Position numbers and translations under genes: made by a program
From: Elusimicrobiota bacterium
GTDB lineage: Bacteria; Elusimicrobiota; Elusimicrobia; Elusimicrobiales; Elusimicrobiaceae
Reading direction: 5' to 3'
DNA length: 64,000 nucleotides
Assembly (NCBI GenBank): GCA_029008615.1
Contig: JAQXJI010000007.1
Span: forward strand, 1 to 64,000
Shown here: one piece after another, positions 1,740 through 8,350 of the stretch
Numbering within the stretch: position 1 is the stretch's first letter
How the letters are laid out: the number at the start of each line of letters is the position of its first letter
The notes under the pieces: generated by a model
What the model was told of the DNA's origin: nothing
The model's database searches: none
The model's input: only the letters and a program-made list of their open reading frames with translations

Positions 1740-1767
1740 TTGACATTTGCCGGTTTAATCGTATTAT
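1740..1767 (+). promoter_or_regulatory. Strong promoter of the structured RNA
   Basis: Consensus TTGACA (1740-1745), 16 nt spacer, TATTAT (1762-1767). The predicted start, around 1774, coincides with the first base of the 9-bp stem that opens the structured RNA. It is one of the two best -35 boxes I saw in the window (the other is at 8374-8403), which suggests high constitutive expression. Confidence 0.7.
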
Positions 1768-1773
1768 ATTGAT

Positions 1774-2160
1774 ACGGGCAGCAAAAACAGGGGGTTCTGA
1801 AAAAATAGAACCAGGTCCCGCTCCTACATAAGGAGGCTGCCCGTTTTGAAAATTTGAAACGGTTGGGCCGAATGGTGTTTTCCGGCGGTGCGGTGTTATG
1901 AATGTAGACGCCGCGTGACGTGAGGACGCCGGATGCGGACAAAAAATTCCCTTGGGTGGGTGTTCGCAGTATTAGGCCGAACTGAGGGCCGGATGTCCGG
2001 ATGGGTACTTGTCCGTCGTTATGGGCGGCGAACCGGTTGTTTAGGATGTCTGCGCCGAGGAGAAGGTATGGAGGAAAGCTCCAGTTGTAGAAGCGGGCGT
2101 TAGCTTGTTACGAAAGGTAATGGATAATTACAGGTGTAACAGTTAAGGCCCGCTTTTTTA
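1774..2160 (+). ncRNA. Unassigned structured non-coding RNA, about 387 nt
   Basis: No protein-coding gene covers this segment on either strand. It starts at a strong promoter and ends in a GC stem followed by TTTTTT. Visible helices include ACGGGCAGC (1774-1782) with GCTGCCCGT (1836-1844). That stem encloses two hairpins, GGTTCT/AGAACC and CTCCT/AGGAG. Further on are a CCGGCG/CGCCGG stem enclosing GCGGTG/CGCCGC, then GCGGACA/TGTTCGC, CCGG-ATGT-CCGG and TGGAG-GAAAG-CTCCA. The last is GCGGGC/GCCCGC enclosing a nested stem-loop. I looked for landmarks of RNase P RNA, tmRNA, SRP RNA, 6S RNA and group I/II introns; none fits. The fragments GAGGAAAG (about 2081) and GTGTAACAG (about 2134) resemble RNase P conserved regions CR-I and CR-II, but the rest does not follow. 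A plain structured RNA is well supported; its identity is open. Confidence 0.75.
2093..2160 (+). terminator. Terminator-like 3' domain of the structured RNA
   Basis: GCGGGC (2093-2098) pairs with GCCCGC (2148-2153), followed by six T. The 49-nt loop is itself folded (TTGTTAC/GTGTAACA, then GTAAT/ATTAC), so the terminator is probably also the last structural domain of the RNA. Confidence 0.6.
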
Positions 2161-2264: not shown

Positions 2265-5200
2265 CTAAGCCGAAGCTTCGTCCGAATCTTGCTTTTGGCG
2301 GAAAATCACTCTTTTTACCCAGTTGCCGAAATCATCAAACAACGAATAGGCAACCGGCGCCATAAGCAGCGTAATAAGCAAGGATAAAGTTTGTCCGCCG
2401 ATAATTACGATGGCCAAACTGCGCCTTAATCCCGAGCCTGCGCCCGTACCCAAAGCCGTAGGTATCATACCTGCGATAATTGTTACGGTGGTCATCAAAA
2501 TAGGGCGCAACCTTACTTTATTGGCTTCCATAATGGCGTTATATTTGTCATAACCCGCGTGGCGCATAGTGTTGGTATAGTCCACCTGCAAAATGGCGTT
2601 TTTACTTACTATACCCATTAACATAAATATGCCCAACAAGCTGAAGATATTAAGCGTTTCGCCGGTAAGAACAAGCGATATAAGCGCAAAAGGTATCGTC
2701 AGCGGTATGGCGGTAAGAATAACGAACGGGTGAACGTAACTTTCAAACTGGGAGGCCAAAATCATATAGATGAACAATATCGCCAAAGAAAAAGCCATAG
2801 CAAAGCTTGACAACATTTTGCCCATTTCGTTTGACTGGCCGTCCAACGCCGACGTATAGTTGGCGGGAGCGTTAAGTTCTTTAAACGCGGCGTCAATAAT
2901 ATTAATTGCGCGGTTCATATCCATTTTGCCGGAAGTATTGGCCTGAATCGTAATTTTTCTCTGGCGGTTCATTCTGTTAATCTGAGAAGGGCCAAACCCC
3001 TGTTCTATCGTGGATAAACTGTCCAAACGCACAAGCGTATTTTTGCCGTTTTGCACCGCGGGTATCATTATAGCCGATATTACGTCTTTGTTGTTTCTGT
3101 AATCTTCATCGGCGCGGACGCGGATTTCGTAAAGTTCATTCCCCTCTTTGTATTTGGATATATCTTCTTCCCCGCCAACCAAAGTGCGCAAAGTGCTTGC
3201 GATATCGCTTACTTTTACGCCGAGGTCATGCGCTTTGTCGCGGTCAATGGAAACCCTGTATTCGGGTTTGGCGAAGTCAAAATCCAAATCCAAGTCTATA
3301 ATGCCGGGGACATCTTTGATTTTGTCATACACGGCATTGGCATATCCCAAAAGCTCGTTCATATCAGGGCCGGAAATTACATACTCGATTTTCGTAGTTC
3401 CTTCCCCAGGAGAACCGCTGATAATAAACACCTGGCTTTTTACTTCATCGTATTTGGCTAGGATATTCCTGGTAGCGTCAATATACTCAAAGAGAGAATA
3501 GCCCTTACCTCTCTTTTTTAAATCCTCAAGCTCCAATATAAAATAGCCTCTGTTGGTGGAAGAGCCGGTATTGACGATACTGTCGGCGGAAACACCGACG
3601 CCGGTAAACAATTTGTCAATATAAGGCATTTGTTTAAGTTCTTTTTCAACCTGCCTCATAAATACCGACATTTGCTGATAGCTGGTACCGTCTGGCGCTT
3701 TGAGGTTTATCTGATACTTGCCCGAATCGTCTTCAGGCATAAAGTCAACACCGATTAAGCCGCTGCCCAAAATAAATATTGAAGAAACGGCCAATAATAA
3801 AGAGAGCACCACCATTAAAAACTTATGGCCCATAGCGAATTTCAAACAAACCATATAAACTTTATTAATGGCGTTGTTTACTCCGTCCACCATTTTGTCG
3901 GCTCTGGATTTTTTGCGTTCGGCCTTTAAGAACTTGCTGCAAAGCATAGGGGTTAAAGTCAAAGCGATTAAACCGCTGATACTGATTGCGTAAGCTACCG
4001 TAAGACCGTAACTTTTTACGAAGCGGCCCACAATACCGCTCATAAAAGCCAAAGGTACGAAGATTACCACCAAAGAAGCCGTAGTCGCCACTACCGCGAA
4101 GGAAATTTCCTTCGCGCCGTCTATGGCGGCCTGCATAGCCGTCTTGCCGTATTCTTCCATATGTCTGTGGATATTTTCAAGCATAATGATGGCGTCGTCA
4201 ATAACGATACCAACCGCCACCGTAAGGCCCAAAAGCGTCATATTGTTTAAAGTGAAATCGCTCAAATACATCAAGAAGAAAGTGCCTATAATTGACGTAG
4301 GTATGGCCATAGCGGAAATAACCGTGGAGCGCAAATCACCCATAAACATAAATACAACGATAGCGGCCAAAAGTGCGCCGACGACCAAGTGTTCCATTAC
4401 CGCAAAGAAAGATTCTTCAATATAACCGGAAGTATCGGATATAGTGTAAATCTCAACGCCTTTGGGCAAGAGCGGTTTTATTCTTTCAAGTCTTTCTTTT
4501 ATTGAGCTGATTACGGCCAAAGTATTGGTGCCCGATTGCTTTTTGATGTTTAAAGACACGCTCCTTTTGCCGTTGATGAAAGTGGCGGCCCTTTCGTATT
4601 CGCCGTCGTCTTCCACGCGGCCGATATCGGATATTTTTATAGGCACTCCGTTTACCGTAGCGACTACGATATCGTCAAAACTTTTTACGCTGTCTATACG
4701 GCCCAAAACGCGCAAATTAAAATCGTTGGCGACGTTTTCCACGCGGCCGCCGGGGATTTCAATATTTTGCTCCATAATGGCCGCTTTTACGTCGCTTACC
4801 GGAATGCCCAAAGACGCCAGTTTAAGAGGATTTACCACTACGTGTATTTCCCTTTCCCTGCCGCCGACGATATCCACAGAGCCTATACCGCTTACGTTTT
4901 CAATATTTTCTTTAACTTGCTTTTTGGCGAGTTCGGTAAGTTCGATAATATCCATATCGCCTGTTACGACTACGTTTAAAATGGCCGAGGCGCCTATATC
5001 CAATTTGGAAATTATCGGAGAGTCAATCCCGTCGGGCAAATCATTTTCTATTTTGTTCACGTTGTCGCGGACTTCCTGCGCGGCGACGTCCGGGTCTTTT
5101 TCCAGTTCGAATTTAATCATTACGAAAGACGCGCCTTCCATAGTTTGGGAAGTCATAGTGTCAATGCCGGAAATTACGTTTACGGCTTCTTCAACCTCTT

Positions 5201-5447
5201 TGGTGATGGAAGTTTCGATTTCTTCCGGGCTGGACCCCTGCAAAGTGGTTTGCACCGTTACGTAAGGGAAGTCCACGTTAGGGTACATATCCACACCCAT
5301 ACGGCTGTAACCGATAAGACCCAAAACTATCAAAATCAAAGAGAACATCACGGTTGTTACCGGCCTTCTGATAAAAAGGGCCGATATACCGCCGCCCCCG
5401 CTTTGGGTTTCTTTTTCCTGTTTAATTTTTTCTTGATTTTCTTGCAT
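2265..5447 (-). CDS. RND-family multidrug efflux pump, inner-membrane subunit (AcrB/MexB type)
   Basis: A 1060-residue HAE-type RND pump that uses the proton gradient to export hydrophobic compounds through a TolC channel. After a cytoplasmic N-terminus, TM1 starts near residue 25, followed by a large periplasmic loop, TM2-6, TM7, a second periplasmic loop and TM8-12. The proton-relay pair is D417-D418 in GIVIDDAIIMLEN, and the relay lysine is K949 in GIVSKNAIL, matching AcrB D407/D408/K940. It is the last gene of a four-gene operon, 11 nt after the membrane-fusion gene and followed by a terminator. The substrate cannot be read from sequence; bile salts or antibiotics would be typical for a gut anaerobe. 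Confidence 0.96.
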   Translation of the reverse strand: MQENQEKIKQEKETQSGGGGISALFIRRPVTTVMFSLILIVLGLIGYSRMGVDMYPNVDFPYVTVQTTLQGSSPEEIETSITKEVEEAVNVISGIDTMTSQTMEGASFVMIKFELEKDPDVAAQEVRDNVNKIENDLPDGIDSPIISKLDIGASAILNVVVTGDMDIIELTELAKKQVKENIENVSGIGSVDIVGGREREIHVVVNPLKLASLGIPVSDVKAAIMEQNIEIPGGRVENVANDFNLRVLGRIDSVKSFDDIVVATVNGVPIKISDIGRVEDDGEYERAATFINGKRSVSLNIKKQSGTNTLAVISSIKERLERIKPLLPKGVEIYTISDTSGYIEESFFAVMEHLVVGALLAAIVVFMFMGDLRSTVISAMAIPTSIIGTFFLMYLSDFTLNNMTLLGLTVAVGIVIDDAIIMLENIHRHMEEYGKTAMQAAIDGAKEISFAVVATTASLVVIFVPLAFMSGIVGRFVKSYGLTVAYAISISGLIALTLTPMLCSKFLKAERKKSRADKMVDGVNNAINKVYMVCLKFAMGHKFLMVVLSLLLAVSSIFILGSGLIGVDFMPEDDSGKYQINLKAPDGTSYQQMSVFMRQVEKELKQMPYIDKLFTGVGVSADSIVNTGSSTNRGYFILELEDLKKRGKGYSLFEYIDATRNILAKYDEVKSQVFIISGSPGEGTTKIEYVISGPDMNELLGYANAVYDKIKDVPGIIDLDLDFDFAKPEYRVSIDRDKAHDLGVKVSDIASTLRTLVGGEEDISKYKEGNELYEIRVRADEDYRNNKDVISAIMIPAVQNGKNTLVRLDSLSTIEQGFGPSQINRMNRQRKITIQANTSGKMDMNRAINIIDAAFKELNAPANYTSALDGQSNEMGKMLSSFAMAFSLAILFIYMILASQFESYVHPFVILTAIPLTIPFALISLVLTGETLNIFSLLGIFMLMGIVSKNAILQVDYTNTMRHAGYDKYNAIMEANKVRLRPILMTTVTIIAGMIPTALGTGAGSGLRRSLAIVIIGGQTLSLLITLLMAPVAYSLFDDFGNWVKRVIFRQKQDSDEASA

Positions 5448-5458
5448 AATTATAAGCC

Positions 5459-6355
5459 TTATTTGTTTTCGACCTTGATTTTGCTTCCGTCTTTAATACC
5501 GAAAACGATTTTGATTATCTCGTCCCCGGTGTTTACGCCGCCAAGGACTTCGTAATCGGACGTTGATTTAAGGCCGATTTCAACCGCTTTTTTGCTTACG
5601 GTTGAGCCGTCGGCGTTTACGATATATACATAATTTTGGACGGAACCGTCTTCGGCGGTTTCGCTCTGCACACTGGTTAAATTGACCGCAGGAATATTTT
5701 TCTTTTCTTCCAAAACAAGTTTCACTTTGGCGAACATTCCAGATTTAAGAGAACCCTCGGAATTATCGGCTTTCAATTCCACCGTAACCACGCGGCTTTG
5801 CGCGTCCACCACCGGGCTGATTTTATAAACTTGGGCTTTAAATTCCCTGTTTCCGAAAGCCTCCACCGTAAAAGAAGCCTCTTGGCCCAAACGGATCTTG
5901 CCGATATATCTTTCGGGTACGTCGATAACGACGCGAACATTCTCTTGATTGACAACCATAGCGACGGGAGTGCTTCTGGTAACGTTTGCGCCGGGGTCAA
6001 GATAAGTTTTGCCGATGACGCCGTTAATGGTGGAAGGGACCAAAACAGGTTCATACACCGCGCCGACTTCGTCGCGCTCAATCAAAGCCAAGCTTTGGTT
6101 GCGTTTTACTTTATCGCCTTCTTTTAAAACATTTTCCAAGAGCTTGCCGTCAACCCTGGGGAAGATTATCGCTTCCTCCCAGGCTTTTATGCTGCCCGTA
6201 ATCAATAAATCCAATTTTACGTCGCGAAGGCTGACCGTTTCGGTTTCCACCGCGAAGGTGTCGGTTTCAATCTGTTCCAGTTTGCTCTTTTCGCCCTTGC
6301 CGGAGCAAGCGCATAAAACAAAAACCGACAATATTAACATTGATAGTTTTTTCAT
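5459..6355 (-). CDS. RND efflux periplasmic adaptor lipoprotein (membrane fusion protein)
   Basis: A 298-residue HlyD/AcrA-type adaptor that links the RND pump to the TolC channel. The N-terminus is a lipoprotein signal with lipobox LCAC, so it is predicted to be anchored in the inner membrane. The order is lipoyl-like half, a very short hairpin, second lipoyl half (NGVIGKTYLDPGANV), beta-barrel domain and membrane-proximal domain. At under 300 residues it is much shorter than AcrA (about 397), because the alpha-helical hairpin is nearly absent. Its ATG overlaps the tolC-like stop as ATGA, showing translational coupling. Confidence 0.93.
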   Translation of the reverse strand: MKKLSMLILSVFVLCACSGKGEKSKLEQIETDTFAVETETVSLRDVKLDLLITGSIKAWEEAIIFPRVDGKLLENVLKEGDKVKRNQSLALIERDEVGAVYEPVLVPSTINGVIGKTYLDPGANVTRSTPVAMVVNQENVRVVIDVPERYIGKIRLGQEASFTVEAFGNREFKAQVYKISPVVDAQSRVVTVELKADNSEGSLKSGMFAKVKLVLEEKKNIPAVNLTSVQSETAEDGSVQNYVYIVNADGSTVSKKAVEIGLKSTSDYEVLGGVNTGDEIIKIVFGIKDGSKIKVENK

Positions 6356-7749
6356 TTTTGCGTAACCTCTTTACCTACTGCATAATTCAAATTGGACATC
6401 GCCGTAAAGGCGTCGTGTACGGCTTGAACGTATTGGAGTTCCGCGTCGTGTAAAAGCAGGGCGGAATCATCCAAGTCAAGCCTGCTGGCAAGGCCGTTTC
6501 TGTAACGGATATTTGTCCTTTCCAAGTTTTTCCTGGCTTCTTCTATGGTGCCTTTAGTAGCCATAATTCTTTTTTTGGCTTCATTGAAGTTAAGCCAACT
6601 TCTTTTAACTTCAATCCTTATATTGCGTTCCGTGTCGCGGGCCTGCAAAAGGGCTTGGTCATAAGCCAATTTGCGTTGTTTTACCAAAGAATCAACCCTG
6701 AAACCCTCAAACAAAGGAATACTGACCCTTAAGCCAACATTGCTGCCCCAAGAGGAATTATTGCTTTCCACCGGTATCATAATATGATCGGAAGTGCCGC
6801 TGTAAGTTAAATTTGCGAAAGCGGCTATGCTGCCGTAGTGATCGGCTTTGGCTATTTTTACCTGCTCTTCCGCAGCTTTTACGTTTAATGCGGAGATGAC
6901 AAGTTCGGGGCGGTTTTCTTCCGCCATTTTATAAAGTTCTTCCAAGCCGGGTACTTTTATTTTAAGAACATCCTGAAGCTGCCACACAAGCGAAAGCGGA
7001 TCCTGAGGATCTTTATTAAGGACGCGTCGCAAAGTTAAGAGGCCCAAGTCATAACTGTTTAAAGCCTGTATCAAAGGCGGCTCGCTGTTGGATACTTTCA
7101 CCTTTTGGTTCAGAACGTCCAAATCACTGGCCAAGCCTTGTTTGTATTTGGAATTGATTTCTTTAAGGTGGTCTTTCGCGATATTAAGATTTTCCTGCTG
7201 AACCTGTATCAAAGCGTGAGATAAAATTATCCCAAAGCACAAAGTGGTAACCGTATCTTTTATTTTGTTTTGGGTTTCCTCAAGCTGCAGATATCCGCTT
7301 TGGGAAGCCAATTCCGCCGCTTTTATGCCGGCTCTTACGGCCCCGCCTTTCCATAAAACCAATGTGCCTTCCACAGAAGCACTGGCGGAATTATCCAAAC
7401 TCATCTTAAAAGAACCCATAGAAGTAATCACTTCCTGCCCTCTTAAAGCGCGGGTATAACTGCCGCTGGCAACTATCTGCGGATATACCGAAGACCAATA
7501 CTGCCTTACCTGCTGGGCGTAAATTTCCGCGTTTTTGCGCGCCACTTGGATAGTGGTATTATCTTGCATAGCCAAGGATACGGCCTCTTCCATAGTAATC
7601 GCGCCTTCTTGATTAGTATCTTTGAGGGCGAACAAATCTATCCCGCCGGATTGTTTTTTTTGCGTTTTGCTCTGCGCCGCCGCAGCGGGCGTCACAAACA
7701 TATTAAGAACCATACCGAATGTAAGCGCAAGGCTGAGAATTTTCTTCAT
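6352..7749 (-). CDS. TolC-family outer-membrane efflux channel
   Basis: A 465-residue protein with a Sec signal peptide (about residues 1-25, ending in AAAA) and two tandem outer-membrane efflux (OEP) repeats of long heptad-rich helices. The repeat starts are recognisable at EEAVSLAMQDNTTIQVARKN and around YKMAEENRPELVIS. It forms the trimeric exit duct for the RND pump encoded next to it. There is no lipobox, so it is TolC-like rather than an OprM-type lipoprotein. It lies 4 nt after the tetR-like gene and overlaps the adaptor gene by 4 nt. Confidence 0.93.
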   Translation of the reverse strand: MKKILSLALTFGMVLNMFVTPAAAAQSKTQKKQSGGIDLFALKDTNQEGAITMEEAVSLAMQDNTTIQVARKNAEIYAQQVRQYWSSVYPQIVASGSYTRALRGQEVITSMGSFKMSLDNSASASVEGTLVLWKGGAVRAGIKAAELASQSGYLQLEETQNKIKDTVTTLCFGIILSHALIQVQQENLNIAKDHLKEINSKYKQGLASDLDVLNQKVKVSNSEPPLIQALNSYDLGLLTLRRVLNKDPQDPLSLVWQLQDVLKIKVPGLEELYKMAEENRPELVISALNVKAAEEQVKIAKADHYGSIAAFANLTYSGTSDHIMIPVESNNSSWGSNVGLRVSIPLFEGFRVDSLVKQRKLAYDQALLQARDTERNIRIEVKRSWLNFNEAKKRIMATKGTIEEARKNLERTNIRYRNGLASRLDLDDSALLLHDAELQYVQAVHDAFTAMSNLNYAVGKEVTQK

Positions 7750-7753
7750 TTAA

Positions 7754-8350
7754 TTATTTCTCCCTATAATCTATCGCCTTTAATATGGCTTGCGCCATAT
7801 CCTTAGGATAAGTAGGCGAAAATTTTATATTGTGTTCGCAGCTGTTTAAAATTAAATGCGCGATATTGGCGAGAATCAACTGTAAGCCGATCTCTTTCCC
7901 TTTTTTGGTAATAAAACCTTTTTTATATTCCTTTTCCAAAATTTCCGAAAGCACCGCGAAATTTTGATCTCTTACTACTTGAAACCTCTTTCCGAGTTCC
8001 GGATTGGATAAAAGATAACTGCTGACGTGAACCACGAACGGGAAAACATCTTTATGGCTGATGTCCTTCACAAATTCCGAAAAAATAAAAACAAGAATTT
8101 CTTTTAAAGAAGAGGCCGATGCGGCGAATTTTTTTAAGTTCTCGTTGCTTACAATATTTTTTTCAACTATTAAGCTGTAACAAAGATCTTCCTTATCTTT
8201 GAAATAATAGTAGAGAACCGGCTTGGTGACGCCGCAGGCTTCCGCGATTTCCCTCATCGAGATATCCTTAAGCCCTTTCTTCGCCATTAAAGAAAAGGCC
8301 TTGTTCTTAATTTTTTCCTTCATTAAATTTTCGTTCGTTTTATCTTTCAT
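7754..8350 (-). CDS. TetR/AcrR-family transcriptional repressor of the efflux operon
   Basis: A 198-residue regulator. The N-terminal helix-turn-helix (about residues 10-55) contains the characteristic MAKKGLKDISMREIAEACG and TKPVLYYYFKDKEDL. The C-terminal two-thirds is the variable ligand-binding and dimerisation domain. It is the first gene of the operon with the TolC, adaptor and pump genes. An ACCTACCGGTAAGT-type inverted repeat lies between the -10 box and the start codon, so it most likely represses its own operon and is released by a pump substrate. M10 is an alternative start. Confidence 0.92.
   Translation of the reverse strand: MKDKTNENLMKEKIKNKAFSLMAKKGLKDISMREIAEACGVTKPVLYYYFKDKEDLCYSLIVEKNIVSNENLKKFAASASSLKEILVFIFSEFVKDISHKDVFPFVVHVSSYLLSNPELGKRFQVVRDQNFAVLSEILEKEYKKGFITKKGKEIGLQLILANIAHLILNSCEHNIKFSPTYPKDMAQAILKAIDYREK

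What the first reader, a model, noticed from the sequence alone, without database searches (positions are those of the whole stretch)
1740..2160. Unassigned structured RNA with strong promoter and terminator
A roughly 387-nt non-coding segment opens at a near-consensus promoter (TTGACA-16-TATTAT) and ends in a stem plus T6, with at least eight stems readable by eye. No landmark of RNase P, tmRNA, SRP, 6S, group I/II or known riboswitches fits, apart from faint GAGGAAAG and GTGTAACAG echoes of RNase P. Two fragments inside are compact domains: a 71-nt three-helix unit at the 5' end and a stacked terminal stem.
Basis: partly seen in the sequence, partly recalled or inferred. Interest (0 to 1): 0.8.

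Follow-up and report, generated by a model that had tools for sequence, protein, structure and literature searches.

The report
Structured RNA with terminal micro-gene
This is a real, previously uncatalogued RNA gene of gut Elusimicrobia: a strongly promoted, elaborately folded RNA of about 385 bases that ends in a tiny 4-12-codon reading frame butted against its terminator, a layout that is kept across many species although the encoded peptide is not, which suggests that being read by ribosomes is part of what the RNA does.

Summary
A 1773-2159 (+) RNA with an 11/12-match promoter folds far better than shuffles and matches no Rfam family. RNase P and tmRNA exist elsewhere in the genome. The promoter, 5' three-way junction and 3' end are conserved in 16 of 18 genomes of the genus, with compensatory base changes in the 5' junction. 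There is no conserved downstream gene, so it is a stand-alone RNA. Just before the terminator lies a Shine-Dalgarno site, AUG, 4-12 codons and a stop that overlaps or abuts the terminator stem (window: AGGAG-N5-AUG, MEESSSCRSGR, UAG at 2101). RNAs with the same layout and the same two internal motifs occur in a second genus and in a complete genome whose size fits Elusimicrobium minutum. Their peptides differ (METSR, MKVHS, MTPSN, MSSCKIEQ, MSKLTN), all three stop codons are used, and in many an in-frame stop sits just upstream of the AUG. Conserved start, frame and stop with a changing peptide points to ribosome engagement rather than to a peptide product. I propose a trans-acting, ribosome-engaged structured RNA. 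Anatomy and conservation are well supported. Translation is inferred and function is unknown. No RNA-seq or Ribo-seq was available.

The parts
1740..1767 (+). sigma-70-type promoter, TTGACA-16-TATTAT
   Evidence: 11 of 12 matches; kept in every full-length genus homologue; start of transcription inferred about 1773-1775
1773..2159 (+). the RNA (predicted transcript, about 385 nt)
   Evidence: z -6.75; conserved at 75-81% in four close relatives while the flanks are diverged
1774..1844 (+). 5' three-way junction: P1 (1775-1782 with 1836-1843), P2 with a 4-nt bulge, P3 (CUCCUACAUAAGGAG)
   Evidence: covariation (10 pairs changed on both sides; cells paired 92.8% against at most 47% for slid controls)
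1890..1914 (+). M1 hairpin GCGGUGUUAUGAAUGUAGACGCCGC; counterpart GGUUGAUGU..UUCGGCC in the second genus
1935..1967 (+). M2 hairpin with an asymmetric A-rich internal loop and CCC/GGG inner stem (GNRA loop in many relatives); counterpart GGCAUAAGUCCCGG in the second genus
2058..2062 (+). Shine-Dalgarno-like site AGGAG, 5 nt before the AUG
   Evidence: GGAG, or a close purine-rich variant, in the homologues examined at 5-8 nt; predicted more accessible than the rest of the RNA (0.61 against 0.35 unpaired)
2068..2103 (+). micro-ORF AUG..UAG, MEESSSCRSGR, stop inside the 5' arm of the terminator
2090..2159 (+). intrinsic terminator with a nested hairpin whose loop GGAUA (2122-2126) is shared with many relatives, then U6

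Best explanation
The segment encodes a new family of stand-alone, strongly transcribed, structured RNA found in the family Elusimicrobiaceae. Shown by comparison: a constant promoter, a folded body, and a 3' end made of a Shine-Dalgarno site, AUG, a frame of 4-12 codons and a stop that overlaps or abuts the intrinsic terminator. Inferred: ribosomes initiate on the finished RNA, read a few codons and terminate in or beside the terminator stem, so each round briefly opens the 3' hairpin. Because the peptide changes while start, frame and stop persist, the act of ribosome engagement is what is selected and not the peptide. Most likely the RNA is a trans-acting, ribosome-associated regulatory RNA (a ribosome tether, sponge or sensor of translation state), whose structured body is the effector and whose micro-ORF couples its stability or activity to translation.
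For: Conserved RNA. No Rfam family. Stand-alone: downstream genes differ by clade (convergent acrB, tRNA-Cys, radC, antisense mutL, pilin; in the second genus mostly a convergent neighbour). Micro-ORF: 44 RNAs, with more than 25 different peptides and UAA, UAG and UGA all used. In group D the GGAG/CUCC hairpin is lost yet M-(E/D)-A-S-S-S remains with different Ser codons. SD-AUG spacing is 5-8 nt despite indels. Many have an in-frame stop 0-3 codons upstream of the AUG. Frame length in 16 clade representatives under a random model: joint log10 P about -8, assuming independence. An architecture scan of a complete 1.64 Mb relative gave one weak hit, while all nine tested homologues with an intact layout scored or were read by eye.
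Against: No transcript or ribosome footprint data. Part of the constancy around the AUG within the window's own subgroup can be explained by the hairpin GGAG-GAWAR-CUCC alone. Some relatives have weaker SD sites (AAGGAAGG) or a predicted paired SD. Homology between the window's genus and the other two genera rests on shared layout and short motifs, not on a significant alignment of the whole RNA. Nothing tests the proposed role in trans.
Confidence: 0.5

Rival explanations
1. A structured RNA that works without being translated (an ornate RNA or RNA-protein particle, in the manner of OLE, GOLLD or ROOL); the SD, AUG and stop are incidental to a purine-rich protein-binding element and the terminator.
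For: Strong structure and covariation. Invariant hairpin GGAG-GAWAR-CUCC in most of the genus, and a GGAUA terminator loop shared between genera. Location near tRNA genes in several members.
Against: In group D the hairpin is gone but SD, AUG and stop remain. In the second genus the codons between AUG and stop vary freely while AUG and an in-frame UAA, UAG or UGA persist.
Confidence: 0.25
2. Translation-dependent control of the RNA's own 3' end: the ribosome at the stop codon melts the terminator stem and so controls read-through or 3' exonuclease decay of this RNA (a stand-alone attenuator).
For: The stop overlaps or abuts the terminator in every clade. Known attenuators use a leader peptide plus a terminator (general knowledge).
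Against: No conserved gene downstream to be controlled, and no conserved antiterminator helix was found. Decay control remains possible and overlaps with the best explanation.
Confidence: 0.15
3. A long-leader mRNA for a bioactive micro-peptide (pheromone or microcin-like precursor).
For: Within the window's genus the peptide keeps M-(E/D)-x-(S/N)-S-(S/N/T).
Against: The peptide is not conserved between clades (METSR, MKVHS, MTPSN, MYSCC, MSKLTN), and no neighbour is shared by all clades.
Confidence: 0.05
4. A diverged copy of a housekeeping RNA (RNase P, tmRNA, 6S or SRP RNA).
For: Faint GAGGAAAG and GTGTAACAG letters; 6S RNA (RF00013) was not detected in four genus genomes.
Against: Canonical RNase P and tmRNA are present. 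Size (about 220-575 nt) and fold do not fit 6S. No Rfam match for any homologue tested. SRP RNA was not searched for on its own.
Confidence: 0.03

Closest known systems
Dual-function small RNAs (SgrS/SgrT, RNAIII, RyhB/RyhP)
   Same: A regulatory RNA that also carries a short ORF with its own SD (general knowledge; RyhB/RyhP in PMC5331693, sRNA-encoded peptides in PMC5521070).
   Different: Here the ORF has 4-12 codons, its peptide is not conserved, and it is fused to the terminator; the body is larger and more structured, and no base-pairing target is known.
OLE, GOLLD and ROOL large ornate RNAs
   Same: Stand-alone, highly structured RNAs, some near tRNA genes; GOLLD is reported to bind ribosomes in pull-downs and OLE to bind RpsU (PMC12286853).
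   Different: No Rfam match to these families; no terminal micro-ORF is described for them in the passages read; this one is chromosomal and genus-wide, and a micro-ORF pattern scan of viral contigs found nothing.
Leader-peptide attenuators (trp, leu leaders)
   Same: Short ORF next to an intrinsic terminator.
   Different: No conserved downstream operon, a long structured body before the ORF, and no run of regulatory codons.
Minigenes (lambda bar; minigene in the axe-txe toxin-antitoxin operon, PMC8708949)
   Same: A few codons after an SD; translation itself can matter.
   Different: Those sit in operons or phage transcripts; here the minigene is a constant 3' module of a structured stand-alone RNA.

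Membership tests
RNase P RNA, type A (RF00010) | match to the family covariance model at or above the gathering score | tested here: not met
   no match in the region; the genome's own RNase P is on another contig, 190.7 bits
tmRNA (RF00023) | tRNA-like ends and match to the covariance model | tested here: not met
   negative; canonical tmRNA elsewhere, 125.7 bits
6S RNA (RF00013) | about 180-200 nt hairpin with a central bubble; model match | tested here: not met
   no match in the region or in four genus genomes; the model also misses 9 of 14 control genomes
ROOL, GOLLD, OLE | match to the Rfam models | tested here: not met
ROOL, GOLLD, OLE | homo-oligomeric particle | not testable with these tools
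   needs cryo-EM or native gels
Csr/Rsm sponge RNA | excess of GGA motifs in exposed loops | tested here: not met
   11 GGA against 9.5 +/- 2.1 in shuffles; only 4 positions conserved among five homologues
cis-acting attenuator or riboswitch | conserved gene downstream in the same direction | tested here: not met
   downstream genes differ among clades and are often convergent
Dual-function sRNA | translated ORF in the RNA | tested here: inconclusive
   comparative evidence for translation; no Ribo-seq
Dual-function sRNA | base-pairing regulation of target mRNAs | not tested
   no target search was made

The most novel reading that the evidence does not exclude
A family-wide class of structured bacterial RNA that recruits ribosomes to a built-in micro-ORF at its 3' end, with the peptide irrelevant, so that ribosome traffic over the terminator hairpin controls or constitutes the RNA's function.
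Probability: 0.4. Interest if true: 0.85.

Novelty: categorically new. Interest (0 to 1): 0.72.

Why it matters
It is an uncatalogued RNA family that is nearly universal in one gut genus and recurs in two others, with an architecture (SD, micro-ORF and terminator fused as one module on a structured RNA) that I do not know from any described family. If translation of the micro-ORF is required, it would be a new way to couple a non-coding RNA to ribosome activity. A cultured relative that appears to carry a copy would make this directly testable.

Tried and rejected
RNase P, tmRNA and 6S identity. CsrA sponge by GGA count. The sub-threshold AaHKsRNA41 match. A riboswitch or attenuator for a neighbour, since there is no conserved downstream gene. 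A longer protein: the 56-codon ORF at 1933-2103 in the window is not kept in relatives, where the open frame upstream of the AUG ranges from 0 to 74 codons. An SD/P3 switch helix: pairing does not covary across groups (read by eye). A pattern scan of viral contigs found nothing. Homologues outside the family were not found with models R1 and R2; the weak R2 hits inspected in other families were promoter-driven short RNAs. Three hits of the M1-M2 pattern outside the family are at the level of chance, since the reversed control pattern also hit a few genomes. Literature searches for Elusimicrobia small RNAs found nothing relevant.

Full report
Observation. Window 1740-2160 holds a near-consensus promoter (11 of 12 matches), a stretch that folds at -162 kcal/mol with z -6.75, and a long nested terminator stem followed by six T. 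Rfam finds only tRNAs in the window. With relaxed thresholds the only match worth naming is a chance hit far below its family's cut-off.

It is a conserved RNA gene. Four close relatives keep it at 75-81% identity between galM and a convergent acrB, with diverged flanks. A covariance model of the 3' domain (R1) and one of promoter plus 5' three-way junction (R2) were searched in 341 genomes of the phylum. Together they find it in 16 of 18 genomes of the same genus; the two misses are 83% and 64% complete. In the 5' junction 92.8% of cells pair, against 33-47% when partners are slid; 10 pairs change on both sides, and 30 such cells compare with 10.6 in shuffles. The alignment was fitted to the R2 structure, so the counts lean in its favour. 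Length varies from about 385 to 575 nt within the genus, with the extra sequence in the middle. Record titles of the close relatives name uncultured Elusimicrobiales and Elusimicrobium.

It is not a known housekeeping RNA. RNase P (190.7 bits) and tmRNA (125.7 bits) lie elsewhere in the genome. 6S RNA was not found with RF00013 in four genus genomes, but that model also misses most control genomes. Homologues have no Rfam match either. GGA motifs are at chance frequency.

The micro-ORF. In the window AGGAG (2058-2062), five bases, AUG (2068), MEESSSCRSGR, UAG (2101-2103), with the stop inside the terminator's 5' arm. Relatives read MEDSSSCRSGR, MEENSNRTSGR, MEENSSNAG, MEDNSSMQAGWL and MEDNSSCR. 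The spacing from SD to AUG shifts between 5 and 8 bases. In two members (L081, L082) the hairpin around the AUG is gone, but SD, AUG, M-(E/D)-A-S-S-S and the stop remain with other serine codons.

A second and third genus. R2 also led to long RNAs in genus g6. BLAST and an M1-M2 pattern extended them to about 30 genomes. Those inspected end in SD, AUG, 3-7 further codons and a stop, directly followed by a terminator stem, usually ACCCCTCGG. Peptides include METSR, METSN, METSK, MDTAR, MKVHS, MKEEK, MTPSN, MYSCC, MHSCK, MSSCKIEQ, MSNS and MKGRP; UGA, UAA and UAG all occur. G018, a single 1,643,562-bp contig that I take from memory of its size to be Elusimicrobium minutum, was fetched whole. A strict architecture scan gave one weak hit. 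Inspection of promoter-bearing gaps then showed an RNA at about 452,320 with TTGACA..TATACT, both internal motifs, then TGGAG-N5-AUG-AGT-AAA-CTA-ACG-AAC-UAA and a terminator; the M1-M2 pattern, which was designed with this sequence in view, hits there once. This copy was found by looking for the layout, so it is weaker evidence than the others.

Statistics and limits. In 16 clade representatives the frame length has a joint random probability of about 1e-8, if the clades are independent, which is optimistic because they share ancestry and were partly selected by layout. SD bases are predicted more accessible than the body (0.61 against 0.35). An in-frame stop lies 0-3 codons upstream of the AUG in many of the RNAs. 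Homology across genera rests on shared order of promoter, M1, M2, micro-ORF and terminator, including a GGAUA-type terminator loop in many, not on a significant full-length alignment.

Context. Downstream genes differ: convergent acrB, tRNA-Cys, radC, antisense mutL, a pilin; in g6 mostly convergent neighbours. So the RNA is stand-alone. Gene names here are my reading of the ORF translations.

Interpretation. Shown: the conserved structured RNA and the conserved layout. Strongly suggested: translation of the micro-ORF. Inferred: ribosome engagement, not the peptide, is the selected property, and the RNA acts in trans. The exact function (ribosome tether, sponge, translation sensor or 3'-end stability control) cannot be decided here. 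Dual-function sRNAs, ornate RNAs (PMC12286853) and minigenes (PMC8708949) each share one aspect, and none that I know shares the whole.

Noticed in passing
L083, L084, L088, L093 (genus g6), about 1500-1620 in RNA orientation: A separate ~75-85-nt RNA with a consensus promoter and terminator, foldable as a three-way junction, lies next to tRNA-Cys, tRNA-Gly and tRNA-Thr near tuf; its relation to the 5' domain of the long RNA is unclear.
   Followed up: partly
L090, L092 (other family of the order), about 1500-1580 in RNA orientation: Very short (~45-55-nt) promoter-plus-hairpin transcripts with strong TTGACA/TATACT promoters, picked up weakly by model R2.
   Followed up: no
window 2265-8350 (-): acrB-type pump (2265-5447), membrane fusion protein (5459-6355), TolC-like outer membrane factor (6352-7749) and a TetR-like regulator (7754-8350): a complete tripartite efflux operon, judged from the ORF translations, convergent with the RNA.
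   Followed up: no
genomes G000, G001, G007, G012: No match to the 6S RNA model RF00013 in four genomes of the genus; the group may lack 6S RNA or have a form too diverged for the model.
   Followed up: no
L043-L045, middle of the RNA: In one subgroup the RNA is about 190 nt longer, the extra sequence lying between M2 and the micro-ORF.
   Followed up: no
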